A DNA stretch of 64,000 nucleotides from Tropicibacter oceani (GTDB taxonomy: Bacteria; Pseudomonadota; Alphaproteobacteria; Rhodobacterales; Rhodobacteraceae), in NCBI RefSeq assembly GCF_029958925.1, contig NZ_CP124616.1:1612001-1676000 (forward strand), given 5' to 3'. Each line of letters starts with the position of its first letter. Positions within the stretch are counted from its first letter, which is position 1. Shown in pieces: positions 2,317-10,648 of the stretch. Under the pieces are notes generated by a model, which had not been told where the DNA came from, did not search any database, and worked only from the letters and a program-made list of their open reading frames with translations. A program made the translations under genes and the position numbers.

Positions 2317-2841
2317 TCACAGTAGGCCGGATGTGCAAACGGAGCACTCGGTTTGCGAAAAATTCGCCCCCCTCACCAACTCCCTCACTACACACCGTGG
2401 CTCTTGCTCTCGCAACCCCTGATTGCCGATCTCGCGCCAGTCTTGCTCATCAAATTCCGGAAAGAAGGCGTCTGCCTTTTCGATCACCAAATCGACTTCG
2501 GTGATCAGCATGCGGTGGGCCAAGGGCAGGAGGGCCTGATAGATGCTTTGGCCGCCGATGCCGTAGATGCGGAAATAGCCCTGGTCGTGGCACAGGCGCA
2601 GGGCGGTGGCGATGTCGGGGGCGGTGTGGTCGCACAAACCGGGGTTCGAGGTGACGACCACGTTGAGGCGGGATTTGAGCGGTTTGACGGGCAGGCTCTC
2701 CCACGTTTTGCGGCCCATGATCAGCGCGCCGCCCAGGGTTTCGCGTTTGAACATGGCGAGGTCTTCGGGCGCGTGCCAGGGGATATCCCCGGCGCGGCCG
2801 ATGGCGGCGTTGCGGGCGCGGGCGGCGATGAGGGTGATCAT
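2317..2841 (-). CDS. folA: Dihydrofolate reductase
   Basis: Reduces dihydrofolate to tetrahydrofolate with NADPH, regenerating the cofactor oxidised by thymidylate synthase. Visible hallmarks are the N-terminal strand MITLIAARA, the substrate-loop [10 protein letters not shown] (the acidic catalytic residue follows the PW pair), the NADPH-binding [10 protein letters not shown], and the GGQSIYQ glycine pair. The start overlaps the thyA stop by four bases, a coupled thyA-folA pair. At 174 residues it is somewhat longer than usual. The final beta strand appears to end around CVVRELVR, after which about 16 residues ([16 protein letters not shown]) look unrelated. The tail lies where base composition falls, so the native stop may have been lost at an insertion junction. 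Confidence 0.93.
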
Positions 2842-3629
2842 ACGGCCACCGGCGCCTTGATCGCGGGCAGAGGGTCGTAGCCGTCAAAGGCAAAGTCGTC
2901 ATAGCGGAAGTCGAAGAGCGAGGGGACGGTGCGCTTGATCGTGAGGCGGGGCAGGGGGCGCGGGCTGCGCGAAAGCTGTTCGCGGACCTGATCCATGTGG
3001 TTGGAGTAGATATGCGCGTCGCCGATGGAGTGGACGAAATCGCCGGGTTCGTAGCCGGTGACATGGGCCAGCATGTGGGCGAGCAGCGCGTAAGAGGCGA
3101 TGTTGAAGGGCACGCCAAGGAACATGTCGGCGCTGCGCTGGTAGAGTTGCAGGTGCAGTTTGCCGCCCAGGATGCGGACCTGCCAGAGGGTGTGGCAGGG
3201 CGGCAGGGCCATGTCGGGCACATCCGCCGGGTTCCAGGCGGAAACGATCATGCGGCGGCTGTCGGGGGTGGTCTTGATCTGGTCGAGCAGGGTTTCGATC
3301 TGGTCGATGGTGCCGTGGTGGCCGGGCCAGTGGCGCCATTGGTGGCCGTAGACCGGGCCGAGGTCGCCGTTTTCGTCGGCCCATTCGTCCCAGATCGAGA
3401 CTCCGTTCTGTTTGAGGTAGGCGATGTTGGTGTCGCCGGCGAGGAACCACAGCAGTTCGTGGACGATGGATTTGAGGTGGAGTTTCTTGGTGGTGACAAG
3501 CGGGAAGCCATCGGCCAGCGGGTAACGCGCCTGAAGCCCGAAGTAAGAGGTGGTGCCGGTGCCGGTGCGGTCGGTCGAGGGGGTGCCGTGGTCGAGAACG
3601 GTGCGCAGGGCGTCGTGGTATTGCTGCAT
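2838..3629 (-). CDS. thyA: Thymidylate synthase
   Basis: Methylates dUMP to dTMP using methylene-tetrahydrofolate, yielding dihydrofolate for FolA. The catalytic cysteine is in LPPCHTLWQ, the phosphate-binding arginines in [12 protein letters not shown], and the dUMP-binding residues in [13 protein letters not shown] and [10 protein letters not shown]. The start at 3629 (MQQYHDALR) matches the family N-terminus and is preceded by GGAAAGG; an in-frame ATG seven codons upstream is less likely. The product is 263 residues, close to the 264 of the E. coli enzyme. It overlaps folA by four bases. Confidence 0.96.
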
Positions 3630-3833
3630 GACTTGCCTTTCCGGTGCCACAAGATGAGTCGGATGCGACTATATCTGGTGGGGTGCCTGATGGGGAGGGC
3701 GATATGGGGTAGAGGCGCAATTGCCTCACATCGGGGGAAATTGCGGCGCGGGTGGGGCGGGAATTGACAAGCGGGGGGCAAGTGCGCAGTCTGGCTGCAA
3801 AATATAAAAACGGGCAAGACCTGAGGCAGTCAA

Positions 3834-4856
3834 ATGAATCGCATTATACTCGCGCTTGCGTTGGCAAGCGTTCTTGCCGCCTGTACGGGTGGCAACCCAA
3901 ACGATTCCGGGAACGATGACGGAATCGGCACGGGAACGCAGCCTTTGGTTGACGAAGAGGTGCCGGACAACGTCGACGAAGAAGGTTCGACCGACAACAG
4001 CGGTCCGGATGTCTATGGCACCGAGGCGAACGACCTGTTGACGATGAACGACGTGGAGTTCGACACCGCCACCGGCGAGTTGGTGTTGAACAACATGCCC
4101 TTTGACGGCGACGACAACCTGTATGCGCGCGACGCCACGGTTTCGACCTCGTTCCGCAATGCCGGGTCCAGCTTTGATGCCTACCGCAACGTGGGCGGGT
4201 CCAACCGGTATTATGCGGTCTTCCGGCAGACCGACTCGGGGTATAGCCGGGTGACGGCTGCGGGCACGGACAACTATGTGACCTTCGGGTTCGGCGGCGT
4301 CGCGGCGCAGCGGCTGAAGGGCAACGGTGCGCTGCCCAACGCCGATCAGTCCTATATCTTCGATGGCGAATACGCGGCGGTGCGCACGATCATCGACCCC
4401 GATACCGGGTCGGAAATGCAGTATGTCGCCGGCACGGTGCGCATTCGCGTGGATGTCGAGGATTTCGACACCACCGGCGCGGTCGAAGGCTATATCGCCG
4501 ACCGGACCTTTTTCGACAACAACGGCGTTTTGATCGACGATCTGAACGGGACGGGCGAATTCATCACCCTGTCCACCGCGGAAATCAACTTTGACAACTG
4601 GACGATCGGATCTTCGGACGCATCGGTTGTCGGCGGCCCGCAACCGACGACGGATCCCAACAATCTGGGCGGCCTTGGCGGCGGGACAACAACCGTTGCA
4701 GGGACTTGGGAAGGTTTGTTCGCTGGCCCCAATGGCGAAGAAGTCGCCGGGATCGTGGTGATGGAGGGTTCCGGCGCAATCGGAATTGACGAAACCACGG
4801 GTGATTATGTCTTTGTCCAAGTCCGCGAAGTCGGCGGCTTTGTCGCCGAACGGTAG
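3834..4856 (+). CDS. Surface-exposed lipoprotein, transferrin-binding-protein-like barrel
   Basis: A 340-residue lipoprotein with signal peptide and lipobox LAAC (lipidated Cys17), followed by an acidic, asparagine- and glycine-rich linker typical of proteins displayed beyond the outer membrane. The middle contains beta-rich sequence around FDGEYAAVRT. The C-terminus has GTWEGLFAGPNGEEVAG, which resembles the glycine-proline strand motifs of TbpB-type beta-barrels. The next gene, five bases on, encodes a Slam-type translocator, and Slam proteins export such lipoproteins to the cell surface. No ligand can be inferred. The thyA promoter region lies divergently upstream. The product is rich in Asp and Thr, as expected for a calcium-rich marine outside, but that is inference. 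Confidence 0.75.
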   Translation: MNRIILALALASVLAACTGGNPNDSGNDDGIGTGTQPLVDEEVPDNVDEEGSTDNSGPDVYGTEANDLLTMNDVEFDTATGELVLNNMPFDGDDNLYARDATVSTSFRNAGSSFDAYRNVGGSNRYYAVFRQTDSGYSRVTAAGTDNYVTFGFGGVAAQRLKGNGALPNADQSYIFDGEYAAVRTIIDPDTGSEMQYVAGTVRIRVDVEDFDTTGAVEGYIADRTFFDNNGVLIDDLNGTGEFITLSTAEINFDNWTIGSSDASVVGGPQPTTDPNNLGGLGGGTTTVAGTWEGLFAGPNGEEVAGIVVMEGSGAIGIDETTGDYVFVQVREVGGFVAER

Positions 4857-4861
4857 GGCAG

Positions 4862-6256
4862 GTGGTCGCCTTTCGCACCGTGATCAGGCGGGGGATTGCC
4901 TGCTGCCTGATGGCCTGTGTCCTTGTGTTGTCGGGCCCTGGTGTCGGGCCGGGCGCGGCGCAGGCTGAAACCCGGCTGAGCCTGGACGAAGCGCGCGACG
5001 TGGCGGGGCGCCTGTTGCAGATGGGCCGCCCGCGCGAGGCGCTGATGCTGGCCGAGGGGGTGCTGCAGGGCGCGCCCGGCGATGTTCCCGCTCTGGTTCT
5101 GAAAAGCCGCGCGCTGCGCGATCTGGGCCGTTTCAAGGATGCGCGGAAGGCGGCTGCGGCGGCGCGGGCTGCGGCGGAAAATGACAAGGACAGGTTCTTT
5201 GCCGCGCTGGTGACGGCGCAGGCGCGGGCCTCGGACGGGGACAAGGGGATTGCGCAATACTGGCTGCGCTATGCGGCGCAGGTGGCCCCGGATGACGATC
5301 TGCGCGCCGTGGCCGTGCGCGATTTCCGCTTTGTGCGCAAGACAACGCCCTGGCGGCTGAAGGCCAGCGTCTTTGCCGAACCTTCGGACAACCTGAACGG
5401 CGCGCCCAAGACCAATGAATTCACCTTTGCCGGTCTGACATTTGAAAACCCAGCGGCGGTGCCGCTGTCGGGGATGCGCTATGGCGCGGATGTGCAGTTT
5501 ACCTATCGCATCCCGCTAAGCCAGCGCAGCCGCGTGAACCTGGGCGCCTTTGGCGGGATCGAGCGGGTGCAGTTTTCCACCAGCGCCAAGGCCAAGGTGC
5601 CGACAATCCGCAACGAGGATTACAGCCGCGACCGGCTGGGGCTTTCGCTGGGGTATGAACGCATGGGCGACGGCGGGGACTGGTTGGCCAAGGGCGAGGT
5701 TGCGGTGGCGCGCTATTGGGCGGGCGGTATGCCAAGCTCGGATGCCGTGATGGTGAACGCGGCCTATCAGCGAAAGCTATTGGGGCGCTGGCAGGGCGGT
5801 CTGCGCCTGGGCTACGAGGATGAAACCCGCCATGATCTGGCAACGCGCAGTTCCACGACCAGGTCGATCGGCGCAAGCCTGTCGCATCCCTTTGCCATGG
5901 GCGCGCTGACGCTGGATCTGGAGCAGTCGGACACGCGGTCGCAATCGCGGCTGGTGGCGCGCGAAACCGCGCGCGCGACGCTGGGCTACCAGATGGGCAA
6001 GCCCGTCCTGGGGATGCTGCCGCGCCTGTCGCTGAGTTACGAGGATGTCCGGTTTGACCAGTCGCCGTTCGGGTTCTGGGTCGATCCGCGCGAAGACAAG
6101 GAATGGGCCATGTCGGTGGATGTGCTGTTGCCCAAGGTCGATTATTTCGGCTTTGCCCCCGAGATCGGGCTTTCCTTCCGGGACAGAAGCTCCAACTATT
6201 CGCTGTACGAAACGCAGAGCACCGATTTGCGGCTGGGCCTCAAGTCGGTATTCTGA
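4862..6256 (+). CDS. Slam-type surface lipoprotein assembly modulator (DUF560)
   Basis: A 464-residue outer-membrane protein. Residues 1-36 form a signal peptide ending AQA. Residues about 40-150 are alanine- and arginine-rich helices of TPR type (LQMGRPREALMLAEG, LKSRALRDLGRFKDAR). Residues about 175-464 are alternating amphipathic strands ending LRLGLKSVF, a terminal aromatic suited to BAM recognition. That order, periplasmic TPR followed by a 14-strand barrel, is the architecture of Slam, which moves lipoproteins across the outer membrane. The GTG start lies five bases after the lipoprotein stop, so the two are probably translationally coupled. A second in-frame GTG at 4880 is an alternative start. 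It could instead be a plain porin, but the TPR module and partner argue for Slam. Confidence 0.8.
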   Translation: MVAFRTVIRRGIACCLMACVLVLSGPGVGPGAAQAETRLSLDEARDVAGRLLQMGRPREALMLAEGVLQGAPGDVPALVLKSRALRDLGRFKDARKAAAAARAAAENDKDRFFAALVTAQARASDGDKGIAQYWLRYAAQVAPDDDLRAVAVRDFRFVRKTTPWRLKASVFAEPSDNLNGAPKTNEFTFAGLTFENPAAVPLSGMRYGADVQFTYRIPLSQRSRVNLGAFGGIERVQFSTSAKAKVPTIRNEDYSRDRLGLSLGYERMGDGGDWLAKGEVAVARYWAGGMPSSDAVMVNAAYQRKLLGRWQGGLRLGYEDETRHDLATRSSTTRSIGASLSHPFAMGALTLDLEQSDTRSQSRLVARETARATLGYQMGKPVLGMLPRLSLSYEDVRFDQSPFGFWVDPREDKEWAMSVDVLLPKVDYFGFAPEIGLSFRDRSSNYSLYETQSTDLRLGLKSVF

Positions 6257-6325
6257 TCGGGAACTGGCTGCGGGTAGAATTTTCACCGAAAGTTTTGCCC
6301 GGCCTCGCCGCTGTTGGGAGAGATC

Positions 6326-6754
6326 ATGGGCATTCGATATCTGCACACGATGGTTCGGGTGAAAGACCTGGACGCATCGATCAAGTTCTATGAATTGCTG
6401 GGGTTGAAGCAGACCCGGCGCATGGACAGCGAGGCGGGTCGCTTTTCGCTGATCTTCATGGCGCCCGAGGGGCAGGAAGAATGCCCTGTCGAGCTGACCT
6501 ATAACTGGGATGGCGACGACGGGCTGCCGTCGGATTCGCGACATTTTGGGCACCTGGCCTATTCGGTGCCCAACATCTACGAAATGTGCCAGCATTTGCA
6601 GGACAACGGCGTGGTGATCAACCGGCCGCCGCGCGACGGGCGCATGGCCTTTGTGCGCTCGCCCGACAATGTATCCATCGAGTTGTTGCAGGAGGGCGAG
6701 GCGCTGACCCCGGCCGAACCTTGGCTGTCGATGCAGAACACGGGCCATTGGTAA
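6326..6754 (+). CDS. gloA: Lactoylglutathione lyase (glyoxalase I)
   Basis: Isomerises the hemithioacetal of methylglyoxal and glutathione to lactoylglutathione. The four metal ligands of the glyoxalase I fold are in place: His7 (RYLHTMV), Glu56 (VELTYNW), His76 (FGHLAYS) and Glu119 (SIELLQ). Length is 142 residues, normal for a bacterial enzyme. The ATG at 6326 is chosen because GGGAG precedes it; an upstream in-frame TTG at 6314 is unlikely. The stop overlaps the TTG start of the next gene. Confidence 0.93.
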   Translation: MGIRYLHTMVRVKDLDASIKFYELLGLKQTRRMDSEAGRFSLIFMAPEGQEECPVELTYNWDGDDGLPSDSRHFGHLAYSVPNIYEMCQHLQDNGVVINRPPRDGRMAFVRSPDNVSIELLQEGEALTPAEPWLSMQNTGHW

Positions 6755-7452
6755 GGCTTGTCCGGCTATTGGCTGTGCTGTGCCTGCTGCCCGGGGTGGC
6801 AGGCGCGCAAAGCCATTGCCGGTTGGCGCTGCTGTTGGCGCTGGATGTGTCGTCGTCGGTGGATGCGGCGGAATATGCCCTGCAGCGCGATGGCACGGCG
6901 GCGGCGCTGACCGCGCCCGATGTGATGCAGGCGATCCTGCAGGGTGGCGGCGGCGCGGTTGCGCTGGGCGTCTATGAATGGAGCGGGCGGCGGCAGTCCA
7001 GCGTGGTGCTGGACTGGACGGTGTTGCGATCCGAGGCGGATGTTCTGGCAGCGGCGGAGCGGCTGCGCGGGGCGCGCCGGTCGTTCACGCGGTTTCCGAC
7101 GGCCCTGGGCTATGCCTTGGGCTATGGCGCGACGATGATGGGCCGCGCGCCGCAGTGCGACCGGCGGGTGATAGACGTGTCGGGCGACGGGATCACCAAC
7201 GACGGCTTTGGCCCCGAGCTGGCCTATCGGCACTTTCCCTTTGACGGGGTGACGGTGAACGGGCTGGCGGTGCTGGGCGCGGACCCGGATGTTCTGGATC
7301 ACTACGAGTTTTTTCTGCAACACGGGCCGGGCGCCTTTGTCGAGACCGCCGAGGGCTATGCCGGGTTTCAGCGCGCGATGGAGCGCAAGCTGTACCGCGA
7401 GATCGAGGATCGCGTGGTCGGCGGATTGCCCGGCGGACGGGGGCCGGGATGA
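6748..7452 (+). CDS. DUF1194 secreted VWA-like protein, copy 1
   Basis: A 234-residue protein with a signal peptide (VRLVRLLAVLCLLPGVAGAQ) and a von Willebrand A-like fold. The metal-ion-dependent adhesion site appears as LDVSSSVD, and a second acidic cluster as DVSGDGITND. These match the DUF1194 family, whose function is unknown. The start is taken as TTG 6748, which gives a proper signal peptide and overlaps gloA by seven bases; no ATG is suitable. The end overlaps copy 2 by four bases. Two cysteines (QSHC, APQC) may form a disulfide. Confidence 0.85.
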   Translation: MVRLVRLLAVLCLLPGVAGAQSHCRLALLLALDVSSSVDAAEYALQRDGTAAALTAPDVMQAILQGGGGAVALGVYEWSGRRQSSVVLDWTVLRSEADVLAAAERLRGARRSFTRFPTALGYALGYGATMMGRAPQCDRRVIDVSGDGITNDGFGPELAYRHFPFDGVTVNGLAVLGADPDVLDHYEFFLQHGPGAFVETAEGYAGFQRAMERKLYREIEDRVVGGLPGGRGPG

Positions 7453-8132
7453 GGGTCCTGGCGGTGATCTGTGCGCTGTGGGCGGGGCAGGCGGTGGCCG
7501 AGTGCCGGCAGGCGCTGGCGCTGGGGCTGGATGTGTCGGGGTCGGTCGACGCGCGGGAGTACCGGTTGCAGCTGGACGGGCTGGCGAATGCGCTGGAAAA
7601 CCCCGAGGTGGCGGCGGCCTTTCTGGCGATGCCGCAGGCGCCGGTGTCGCTGGCGGTGTTCGAATGGAGCGGCGCCGCGGCGCAGCGCGGGTTGCTGGAC
7701 TGGACGGCGGTGACGGATGGGGCGGTTCTGGCCGGGATTGCGGCGCGGCTGCGCGCGGTGGCGCGGGTTCCGCTGGATCCCTCGACGGCGATTGGCGCGG
7801 CCAAGGCGCATGGGGCGGCGTTGCTGGCGCAGCAGCCCGGGTGCTGGCGGCAGGTGCTGGACCTGTCGGGCGACGGGCAGAGCAACACCGGGCCAAGGCC
7901 GCAGGATGTGCGCCCGGGCGGCATCACGATCAACGCGCTGGTCATCGGCACGCCGGAGACGCCGGGGCGCGCGGCGCCGGGGTTGGGTGAATTGGTGGCC
8001 TATTTCCGCGCTTACGTGATCGAGGGCGATCAGGCCTTTGTCGAGACCGCGCAGGGGTTCGAGGCTTTCGAGGCGGCCATGGTGCGCAAGCTGAAGCGCG
8101 AATTGCAGGTCATGGTGCTGTCAGGGCGCTGA
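7449..8132 (+). CDS. DUF1194 secreted VWA-like protein, copy 2
   Basis: A 227-residue paralogue of the preceding gene, with a short signal peptide ending QAVAEC, the adhesion-site motif LDVSGSVD, a conserved FEWSG segment shared with copy 1 (YEWSG), and LDLSGDGQSN. The two proteins align end to end, so they arose by tandem duplication and may form a heterodimer; that is inference. It ends just before a dispersed intergenic repeat at 8141-8190. Function is unknown, but a periplasmic metal-dependent adhesion or scaffolding role fits the fold. Confidence 0.87.
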   Translation: MRVLAVICALWAGQAVAECRQALALGLDVSGSVDAREYRLQLDGLANALENPEVAAAFLAMPQAPVSLAVFEWSGAAAQRGLLDWTAVTDGAVLAGIAARLRAVARVPLDPSTAIGAAKAHGAALLAQQPGCWRQVLDLSGDGQSNTGPRPQDVRPGGITINALVIGTPETPGRAAPGLGELVAYFRAYVIEGDQAFVETAQGFEAFEAAMVRKLKRELQVMVLSGR

Positions 8133-10384: not shown

Positions 10385-10648
10385 ATGGTCGAGGACCGCG
10401 AAACCCGCAAGAAGCGGCTGGCGATGCGTTCGATGCGGCGGGGCATGAAGGAAATGGATATCCTTCTGATCCGCTACAGCGAGGCAAAGCTGGCCGGCAT
10501 GGACGATGCCGCGCTGGACACCTACGAGGCGCTGCTGGGCGAGAACGACCAGGACCTGTACCAGTGGATTTCCGGCCAGCGCCCGGCTCCGGCCGCGCAT
10601 CAGGCGCTGGTCGAGGATATCCGCGAGGTCGCATCCGGCGCGGGCTGA
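10385..10648 (+). CDS. sdhE: FAD assembly factor SdhE
   Basis: An 87-residue helical protein of the SdhE/CptB family, which promotes covalent FAD attachment to the succinate dehydrogenase flavoprotein. The signature RRGMKEMD contains the RGxxE motif that contacts the flavoprotein, followed by the FAxLL-like bundle DTYEALLGENDQDLYQWI. Length matches the family. The start ATG directly follows the stop of the XRE regulator, with AAGGAGCAGG upstream as ribosome binding site. Acts in the cytoplasm. Confidence 0.92.
   Translation: MVEDRETRKKRLAMRSMRRGMKEMDILLIRYSEAKLAGMDDAALDTYEALLGENDQDLYQWISGQRPAPAAHQALVEDIREVASGAG

What the first reader, a model, noticed from the sequence alone, without database searches (positions are those of the whole stretch)
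3834..6256. Slam-type translocator coupled to a TbpB-like surface lipoprotein in a marine alphaproteobacterium
The first gene has a lipobox, a long acidic linker and C-terminal GTWEGLFAGPNGEEVAG strands resembling TbpB barrels. The second, five bases later, has signal peptide, TPR helices and a barrel ending in Phe, the Slam architecture. Slam systems are best described in Neisseria and relatives, where the cargo captures host iron proteins or complement factors. Here the cargo has no host-protein rationale, so the ligand could be a marine metal complex or heme source. The pair sits beside thyA with no iron regulator visible.
Basis: partly seen in the sequence, partly recalled or inferred. Interest (0 to 1): 0.72.

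Follow-up and report, generated by a model that had tools for sequence, protein, structure and literature searches.

The report
Marine Slam translocator with matched lipoprotein
A bacterium of the Roseobacter group carries a two-gene set, an outer-membrane channel and the surface protein it most likely pushes outside; the set and its neighbourhood were already described in print in 2025, and what is added here is evidence that the two genes come, go and change together while the neighbouring genes mostly do not.

Summary
Window 4862-6256 encodes a Slam/T11SS outer-membrane protein (PF04575, E 3.5e-9; TPR helices and 14 predicted strands). Window 3834-4856 encodes a lipobox protein with a predicted C-terminal eight-strand barrel. 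Its best solved matches are known Slam cargo: fHbp (Z 15.8), haemophilin, NHBA, HpuA, TbpB.

It is not new in kind: Grossman et al. 2025 (PMC12282271, Fig. 8 legend) describe this locus, found known cargo domains rare in its cluster, and raised DUF1194 as possible cargo.

My survey refines that. Of 113 genomes with usable gloA flanks, 58 have the Slam; 56 of these have the cargo, 0 of 55 without Slam do. In loci not used for the profiles: 40 of 42. Slam and cargo co-diverge (r 0.73). DUF1194 occurs with or without Slam (44 of 58, 34 of 55), though two or more copies are commoner with Slam.

An iron or haem ligand finds no support (no histidine; no nearby TonB receptor). The ligand is unknown and export is untested.

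The parts
3834..4856 (+). Putative Slam/T11SS cargo: surface lipoprotein, 340 aa. Lipobox Cys17; low-confidence acidic linker (about 18-66); N-terminal handle/effector domain (about 67-171); C-terminal eight-strand barrel (strands from 172-188 to 325-339).
   Evidence: AlphaFold2 model of 9 sequences: mean pLDDT 68.7, pTM 0.71; ten-residue blocks from 171 on mostly 73-91, except the loop 261-290 (73, 39, 61).
4862..6256 (+). Slam/T11SS outer-membrane protein (DUF560/SlipAM), 464 aa: signal peptide, TPR helices 41-161, 14 long strands 164-463, C-terminal Phe.
   Evidence: PF04575 3.5e-9; TPR_19 7.8e-8; mean pLDDT 83.3, pTM 0.69; TPR domains Z about 18; pores CymA and OmpG Z about 21.
2317..2841 (-). 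folA, dihydrofolate reductase; neighbourhood gene, not thought part of the system
   Evidence: PF00186 1e-43.
2838..3650 (-). thyA, thymidylate synthase, divergent neighbour; not thought part of the system
   Evidence: PF00303 6.8e-120. thyA seen in 10 of 58 Slam+ and 8 of 55 Slam- loci.
6314..6754 (+). glyoxalase / lactoylglutathione-lyase-like gene (gloA); neighbour used as landmark
   Evidence: PF00903 2.4e-17; matched in 120 of 120 family genomes.
6751..7452 (+). DUF1194 (VWA-like) protein with signal peptide and DxSxS motif, first copy; start codon uncertain
   Evidence: PF06707 1.1e-66 (scanned as ORF 6586-7452). DUF1194 occurs at such loci with or without Slam.
7449..8132 (+). DUF1194 protein with DxSxS motif, second copy
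   Evidence: PF06707 3.5e-62.

Best explanation
The two genes are a one-channel, one-cargo type 11 (Slam) secretion pair. The cargo is made with a type II signal peptide, lipidated at Cys17 and taken through the periplasm. It is threaded unfolded through the barrel of the Slam protein, whose TPR region faces the periplasm. Outside it folds into a handle domain on an eight-strand barrel and stays anchored by its lipid. Shown here: the architectures (by prediction), the fold match to known cargo, the gene coupling and the co-divergence. Inferred from studied Slams: every export step. My choice for the job outside is a surface binding protein or adhesin acting without a dedicated TonB receptor and without His-ligated haem or metal; this last step is a weak inference (about 0.35), and the stated confidence is for the Slam-cargo pair, not for it.
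For: SlipAM and TPR_19 over cut-off; TPR plus 14-strand model. Cargo model: all 15 Foldseek hits at E 0.001 or less are TbpB, LbpB, fHbp chimeras, HpuA or a haemophore; VIA-align Z 15.8 to fHbp over 156 residues at 2.4 A, 14.4 to HphA, 12.2 to NHBA and HpuA, about 12 to TbpB. Of 18 cargo proteins scanned (window included, E up to 1), 2 hit TbpB_B_D (best 6.2e-7) and 7 hit FHBP_C weakly. Lipobox-like Cys by my pattern in 58 of 63 cargo ORFs. Cargo with Slam in 56 of 58 loci and without Slam in 0 of 55; among loci not used for the profiles 40 of 42 and 0 of 55. Slam and cargo distances correlate at 0.73 over 39 loci, partial 0.72, 0 of 999 permutations as high; on 43 loci 0.69, against 0.22 for Slam with DUF1194. 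The channel role is shown for Slam1 and TbpB in PMC9090332 (abstract seen).
Against: No export, lipidation or surface exposure has been measured for this pair. The window cargo alone hits no cargo family over cut-off. The cargo model rests on 9 fairly close sequences, mean pLDDT 68.7, two of the five models at about 40; Foldseek's own alignments have low TM-scores (0.26-0.33 by query for the 15 best) and rmsd 8-14 A, and other barrels (PsbO, nitrobindin) follow at E 0.0016 and above. The handle domain is not more variable than the barrel in the 18-row alignment (0.44 against 0.40), unlike the pattern described for known cargo. Co-divergence may reflect transfer of the pair as a unit rather than fitting of partners. 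The gloA tree is poorly resolved: of 29 parsimony changes of Slam only 2 are forced by starred branches.
Confidence: 0.88

Rival explanations
1. The pair is a nutrient co-receptor of the haemophilin or TbpB type: the cargo captures haem or a metal complex and hands it to a TonB-dependent receptor encoded elsewhere. (This is a rival for the ligand, inside the Slam-pair reading.)
For: Fold matches include haemophilins (HphA Z 14.4) and TbpB (about 12); cluster 1 T11SS loci associate with haem and iron genes (PMC12282271, abstract and passages).
Against: No His in the mature window cargo, and none in 14 of the 58 cargo proteins examined. Two PF00593 hits in the genome, both over 1.4 Mb away. No match to the Irr- or RirA-type patterns near the pair. 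The paper finds TonB receptors rare in cluster 3 loci (section 18) and haem or iron uptake lacking there (section 19 part 1). Haem can be bound through other residues, so this is not excluded.
Confidence: 0.2
2. The Slam protein mainly exports the neighbouring DUF1194 proteins, the lipoprotein being a minor partner (DUF1194 as cargo is raised as a possibility in PMC12282271, section 19 part 1).
For: DUF1194 is common beside this Slam, 44 of 58; two or more copies are commoner with Slam, 27 of 58 against 13 of 55, Fisher p 0.018. The weak Slam-DUF1194 distance correlation (0.22) exceeds all 999 permutations.
Against: DUF1194 stays beside gloA in 34 of 55 loci without Slam; difference in presence p 0.15. 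Slam-DUF1194 correlation 0.22 against 0.69 for Slam-cargo on the same 43 loci. The published DUF1194 models show a Rossmann-like fold, not the cargo barrel (PMC12282271 section 18).
Confidence: 0.06
3. The barrel is a plain porin or polysaccharide export pore (BcsC-like) and the lipoprotein an ordinary periplasmic one.
For: Foldseek's best hits to the channel model are BcsC and porins; OmpG and CymA head the VIA-align list.
Against: SlipAM match over cut-off. The upstream partner has the Slam-cargo fold and is coupled to the channel in 56 of 58 loci. No polysaccharide-synthesis family was hit among the ten neighbouring ORFs scanned.
Confidence: 0.04

Closest known systems
Marine cluster 3 T11SS locus of Rhodobacteraceae/Roseobacteraceae (Grossman et al. 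2025, PMC12282271, section 18 with Fig. 8 legend)
   Same: Same gene set: thymidylate synthase, a lipoprotein (282-375 aa in the paper; 340 here) with C-terminal eight-strand barrel, T11SS OMP, lactoylglutathione lyase, one or more DUF1194. Co-occurring functions listed there include dihydrofolate reductase and aspartate aminotransferase (section 17), also found here.
   Different: The paper names flavin-dependent thymidylate synthase at its 11 loci; the window has classical ThyA (PF00303). The paper finds TbpBBD in 8 of 145 cluster 3 loci; here a family-specific profile finds cargo in 56 of 58 Slam loci at this site. I did not have their sequence list, so membership of cluster 3 rests on synteny only.
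Neisserial Slam1/Slam2 with TbpB, fHbp, HpuA (PMC5449769, passages; PMC9090332, abstract)
   Same: Periplasmic TPR domain plus 14-strand DUF560 barrel; adjacent lipoprotein with handle domain and C-terminal eight-strand barrel.
   Different: No host-protein ligand evident, single-lobe cargo, no TonB receptor nearby.
Haemophilins (HphA/Hpl/HrpC), soluble T11SS cargo
   Same: Fold match at single-lobe size (HphA Z 14.4, H. haemolyticus haemophore 14.1).
   Different: Window cargo has a lipobox and no histidine; the haemophilins are described as unlipidated soluble cargo (PMC12282271 introduction passage).

Membership tests
Slam / T11SS outer-membrane protein (SlipAM, DUF560) | DUF560/SlipAM barrel domain | tested here: met
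   PF04575 37.1 bits, cut-off 22, profile positions 104-288 of 288.
Slam / T11SS outer-membrane protein (SlipAM, DUF560) | N-terminal periplasmic TPR domain | tested here: met
   TPR_19 33 bits, cut-off 25; helices 41-161 match TPR domains at Z about 18. The dedicated TPR_Slam model is not among the window protein's hits; it hit paralogue A below its cut-off.
Slam / T11SS outer-membrane protein (SlipAM, DUF560) | 14-strand outer-membrane barrel | tested here: met
   By prediction only: 14 strands of 12 or more residues between 164 and 463, C-terminal Phe.
Slam / T11SS outer-membrane protein (SlipAM, DUF560) | Moves cargo to the cell surface | not testable with these tools
   Needs a translocation assay.
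Slam-dependent surface lipoprotein (TbpB/fHbp-like) | Lipobox | tested here: met
   LAAC at Cys17; lipobox-like Cys by my pattern in 58 of 63 cargo ORFs. No signal-peptide program was run; LPAM_1 hit below cut-off.
Slam-dependent surface lipoprotein (TbpB/fHbp-like) | C-terminal eight-strand barrel of the TbpB/fHbp fold | tested here: met
   By prediction only: eight strands between 172 and 339; fHbp Z 15.8, NHBA 12.2, TbpB about 12.
Slam-dependent surface lipoprotein (TbpB/fHbp-like) | Match to TbpB_B_D or FHBP_C sequence family | tested here: inconclusive
   Window protein: none. Of 18 cargo proteins scanned, 2 hit TbpB_B_D (best 6.2e-7) and 7 FHBP_C (best 0.0038); the two FHBP_C scores looked at singly are below cut-off.
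Slam-dependent surface lipoprotein (TbpB/fHbp-like) | Gene adjacent to Slam | tested here: met
   Five bases apart; cargo upstream in 56 of 58 Slam loci.
Haem or metal-capturing T11SS cargo | TonB receptor partner encoded nearby | tested here: not met
   PF00593 search of the own genome (E 0.001 or less): two hits, both over 1.4 Mb from the pair.
Haem or metal-capturing T11SS cargo | Conserved histidine ligand | tested here: not met
   0 His in the mature window cargo; 14 of 58 cargo proteins with none. Other ligand residues were not tested.

The most novel reading that the evidence does not exclude
In the Roseobacter group the Slam pair is a rapidly diverging surface-display unit whose cargo is not a nutrient co-receptor but a surface adhesin or recognition protein. 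The pair is gained and lost together at a fixed chromosomal site beside gloA. The published folate, glyoxalase and DUF1194 link would then be an accident of location rather than of function.
Probability: 0.35. Interest if true: 0.5.

Novelty: new member of a known kind. Interest (0 to 1): 0.32.

Why it matters
According to the abstract of PMC12282271 the only T11SS proteins with experimentally verified cargo are seven from animal-associated cluster 1, and that paper left open whether the marine cluster 3 still has barrel cargo in most cases. At this site nearly every Slam has a matched lipoprotein (56 of 58) that standard family models mostly miss (2 of 18 hit TbpB_B_D). DUF1194 remains when the pair is absent (34 of 55), and gloA is present in all 120 family genomes searched. 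This gives a concrete cargo list (63 ORFs) and weakens the functional hints drawn from the neighbours.

Tried and rejected
A plain protein search with the window cargo matched 9 of 61 relatives and the Slam 22 of 61; the Pfam SlipAM model matched 19 of 61; family-specific profiles were needed. PDB sequence searches: nothing for the cargo; only weak TPR-type hits for the Slam (best E 0.048); no meaningful hit for the 18-row cargo profile. NCBIfam: no hit over a cut-off. Phage families: none. Promoter scan of 3600-6400: no sigma-70-like site. Iron boxes: Irr-type pattern 0 matches in the window; TGA-N9-TCA 19 matches against 9.5 expected, none before 13415; both patterns are recalled, simplified forms. 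A thyA link to the pair is rejected: 10 of 58 Slam+ and 8 of 55 Slam- loci. marR and aspC do go with Slam (marR 44 of 58 against 24 of 55; aspC 42 of 58 against 23 of 55; p 0.0006 and 0.0012); I read this as one conserved chromosomal arrangement but did not prove it. A gloA tree to count gains and losses was too poorly resolved (2 starred of 110 inner branches). No solved Slam structure was among the 50 rows shown of either list; that says nothing about whether one exists.

Rows dropped before the 113-genome count: 16 of 129 loci, for less than 3.5 kb upstream or 2 kb downstream of gloA. Among them 7 had a Slam hit and 6 of these a cargo hit; in the seventh, G128, only 237 bases lay upstream of gloA. 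The 113 include three genomes outside the family (G045, G048, G054, all without Slam) and two of the window's genus. The 18 training cargos were chosen by their place upstream of Slam, so the held-out count (40 of 42) is the fair one. Two Slam loci lacked a cargo hit: G091, whose Slam ORF is a 348-residue barrel in which I see no TPR part, and G085, where the Slam hit sits in a 941-residue ORF and the frame is unclear. Of the five cargo ORFs without lipobox by my pattern, one (L126) shows a likely lipobox that the pattern missed, and the others seem cut or to have a wrong start; I did not resolve them.

Full report
What is there. Two adjacent genes on the + strand, 3834-4856 and 4862-6256, five bases apart. 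The first encodes a 340-residue protein with a lipobox ending at Cys17, an acidic linker and a Gly-rich C-terminal part. The second encodes a 464-residue protein with a signal-peptide-like start, TPR region and C-terminal Phe. Pfam places the second in SlipAM (PF04575, 37.1 bits, cut-off 22) with TPR_19 over its cut-off; the first has no family hit over cut-off. Upstream and divergent are thyA and folA; downstream are a glyoxalase gene (gloA), two DUF1194 genes, then aspC, an HTH gene and a MarR-type regulator. A short gene at 10385-10648 I call sdhE from recall.

Folds. AlphaFold2 models were made from the window and named relatives (alignments A4 and A5, 9 rows each). The cargo model (mean pLDDT 68.7, pTM 0.71; signal and linker unreliable; two of five models poor) has eight C-terminal strands at 172-188, 192-210, 214-228, 243-252, 257-266, 286-297, 303-318 and 325-339, preceded by a small mixed domain. 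All 15 Foldseek hits at E 0.001 or less are TbpB, LbpB, fHbp chimeras, HpuA or a haemophore; their TM-scores are low (0.26-0.33 by query) and other barrels such as PsbO and nitrobindin follow at E 0.0016 and above. VIA-align gives fHbp Z 15.8 (2.4 A, 156 residues), HphA 14.4, NHBA 12.2, HpuA 12.2 and TbpB about 12; by their titles the 50 rows shown are fHbp (alone or as chimera), haemophilins, NHBA, HpuA, TbpB and one 'surface lipoprotein'. The channel model (mean pLDDT 83.3) has TPR helices 41-161 and 14 long strands 164-463. It matches TPR domains (Z about 18) and the pores CymA and OmpG (Z about 21; 14-strand pores, from recall).

The published locus. Grossman et al. 2025 (PMC12282271; abstract, passages, sections 17 and 18 and the first part of 19 seen) describe a syntenic marine 'cluster 3' T11SS locus in 11 Rhodobacteraceae/Roseobacteraceae strains with thymidylate synthase, lactoylglutathione lyase, DUF1194 and, in all but one, a lipoprotein of 282-375 aa with an eight-strand barrel. 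The window shows the same gene set. They report TbpBBD in 8 of 145 cluster 3 loci and DUF1194 in 102 of 145. They suggest that these Slams seldom co-occur with their cargo, or use cargo below the similarity threshold, or evolved other functions, and they raise DUF1194 proteins as possible cargo. Library searches on Slam or T11SS showed, among the rows listed (5 of 5; 20 of 2,449; 20 of 400; 20 of 25), no other paper whose title or abstract start is about this locus.

Is the cargo really rare? Profiles of Slam and cargo were built from 18 loci, the cargo being taken by place upstream of Slam. gloA marks the site independently of Slam: it matched in 120 of 120 family genomes, with one match in 118, and in 40 of 61 relatives that include distant ones. 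Of 129 loci with gloA, 113 had enough flank. Slam was found in 58, cargo in 56 of those, and cargo in 0 of 55 without Slam (Fisher p 2e-30). Leaving out loci used to build the profiles: 42 with Slam, 40 of them with cargo, 0 of 55 without. Each of the 63 cargo hits lies in a locus that also holds a Slam hit. All 9 named loci carry the pair, in one (L086) with the cargo split by a frameshift. So at this site loss of the partner is the exception, and similarity below threshold explains the published dearth best. I did not test Slams at other sites.

Are the neighbours part of it? DUF1194 lies downstream of gloA in 44 of 58 Slam+ and 34 of 55 Slam- loci (p 0.15). Against my reading, two or more copies are commoner with Slam (27 of 58 against 13 of 55, p 0.018), and marR and aspC are also commoner at Slam+ loci. 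Pairwise distances over 39 loci: Slam-cargo r 0.73; Slam with gloA, marR and aspC 0.14, 0.22 and 0.36; Slam-cargo partial on these three 0.72, with 0 of 999 permutations as high. Over 43 loci the faster-changing DUF1194 gives 0.22 with Slam and 0.10 with cargo, against 0.69 for Slam-cargo; the 0.22 still exceeds all 999 permutations, as shared descent alone could give. On a gloA tree the Slam state needs 29 changes, but only 2 are forced by well-supported branches, so the number of independent gains and losses is unknown. The pair behaves as one unit; the neighbours mostly do not.

What does the cargo bind? Unknown. Against haem or metal capture: no His in the mature protein, one Cys (the lipid anchor), 14 of 58 cargo proteins without His, no TonB-dependent receptor nearby, and no match to the simplified iron-box patterns near the pair. 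None of this excludes other ligands or other haem ligands. Unlike the pattern described for known cargo, the handle domain is not more variable than the barrel (mean conservation 0.44 against 0.40). Gly155 is invariant and Arg160 nearly so in the 18-row alignment; the loop from Tyr148 to Arg160 is a candidate contact site, by inference, and part of it (157-166) is predicted with low confidence. I favour a surface binding protein or adhesin, at low confidence.

How it works. Transport of unfolded TbpB through Slam1 proteoliposomes, helped by the chaperone Skp, is shown in PMC9090332 (abstract). The TPR plus 14-strand architecture, and Slam-adjacent lipoproteins with an eight-strand barrel across Proteobacteria, are in PMC5449769 (passages). 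The window pair meets the anatomical criteria tested, except that the cargo's sequence family match is inconclusive; export is inferred.

Verdict. The locus is a member of a published group, so novelty is limited. The new content is the tight joint presence, absence and divergence of the two genes, and the weakening of the neighbour-based functional hints.

Noticed in passing
L037:4839-7077 (G000:C1, about 2206838-2209076, outside the window): A 566-residue ORF has two CxxCH haem motifs near its N-terminus, a charged and Gly-rich linker, and a C-terminal barrel that hits SlipAM (6.3e-9). Directly upstream is a multihaem cytochrome c3-like gene. It looks like a cytochrome fused to a SlipAM-type barrel, perhaps an electron conduit rather than a Slam.
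   Followed up: partly
L036:6516-8653 (G000:C1, about 2774515-2776652): A second Slam-like protein of the genome (SlipAM 3.6e-23) has a 236-residue lipoprotein gene upstream whose C-terminal part holds GNFVGPQGEGMIGAVVGG, TbpB-like by eye; it has no Pfam hit and is not matched by the window's cargo profile.
   Followed up: partly
L154 (G091): At the same site a Slam ORF keeps the barrel but shows no TPR part, and no cargo was found: a possible stage of joint decay.
   Followed up: partly
L081 (JAFKDC010000015.1): A contig titled Enemella evansiae TN21-6 (an actinobacterial name, from recall) has this Roseobacter-type locus; its length, 133588, equals that of G003:C15 of the window's family, so the record title is probably wrong.
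   Followed up: no
window, 13415-62957: The pattern TGA-N9-TCA occurs 19 times against 9.5 expected, all matches beyond 13 kb.
   Followed up: no
L087 and L088 (Mameliella): thyA ends about 3.7 kb upstream of the cargo, against about 0.2-0.3 kb in the other named loci where thyA was found, with unexamined DNA between.
   Followed up: no
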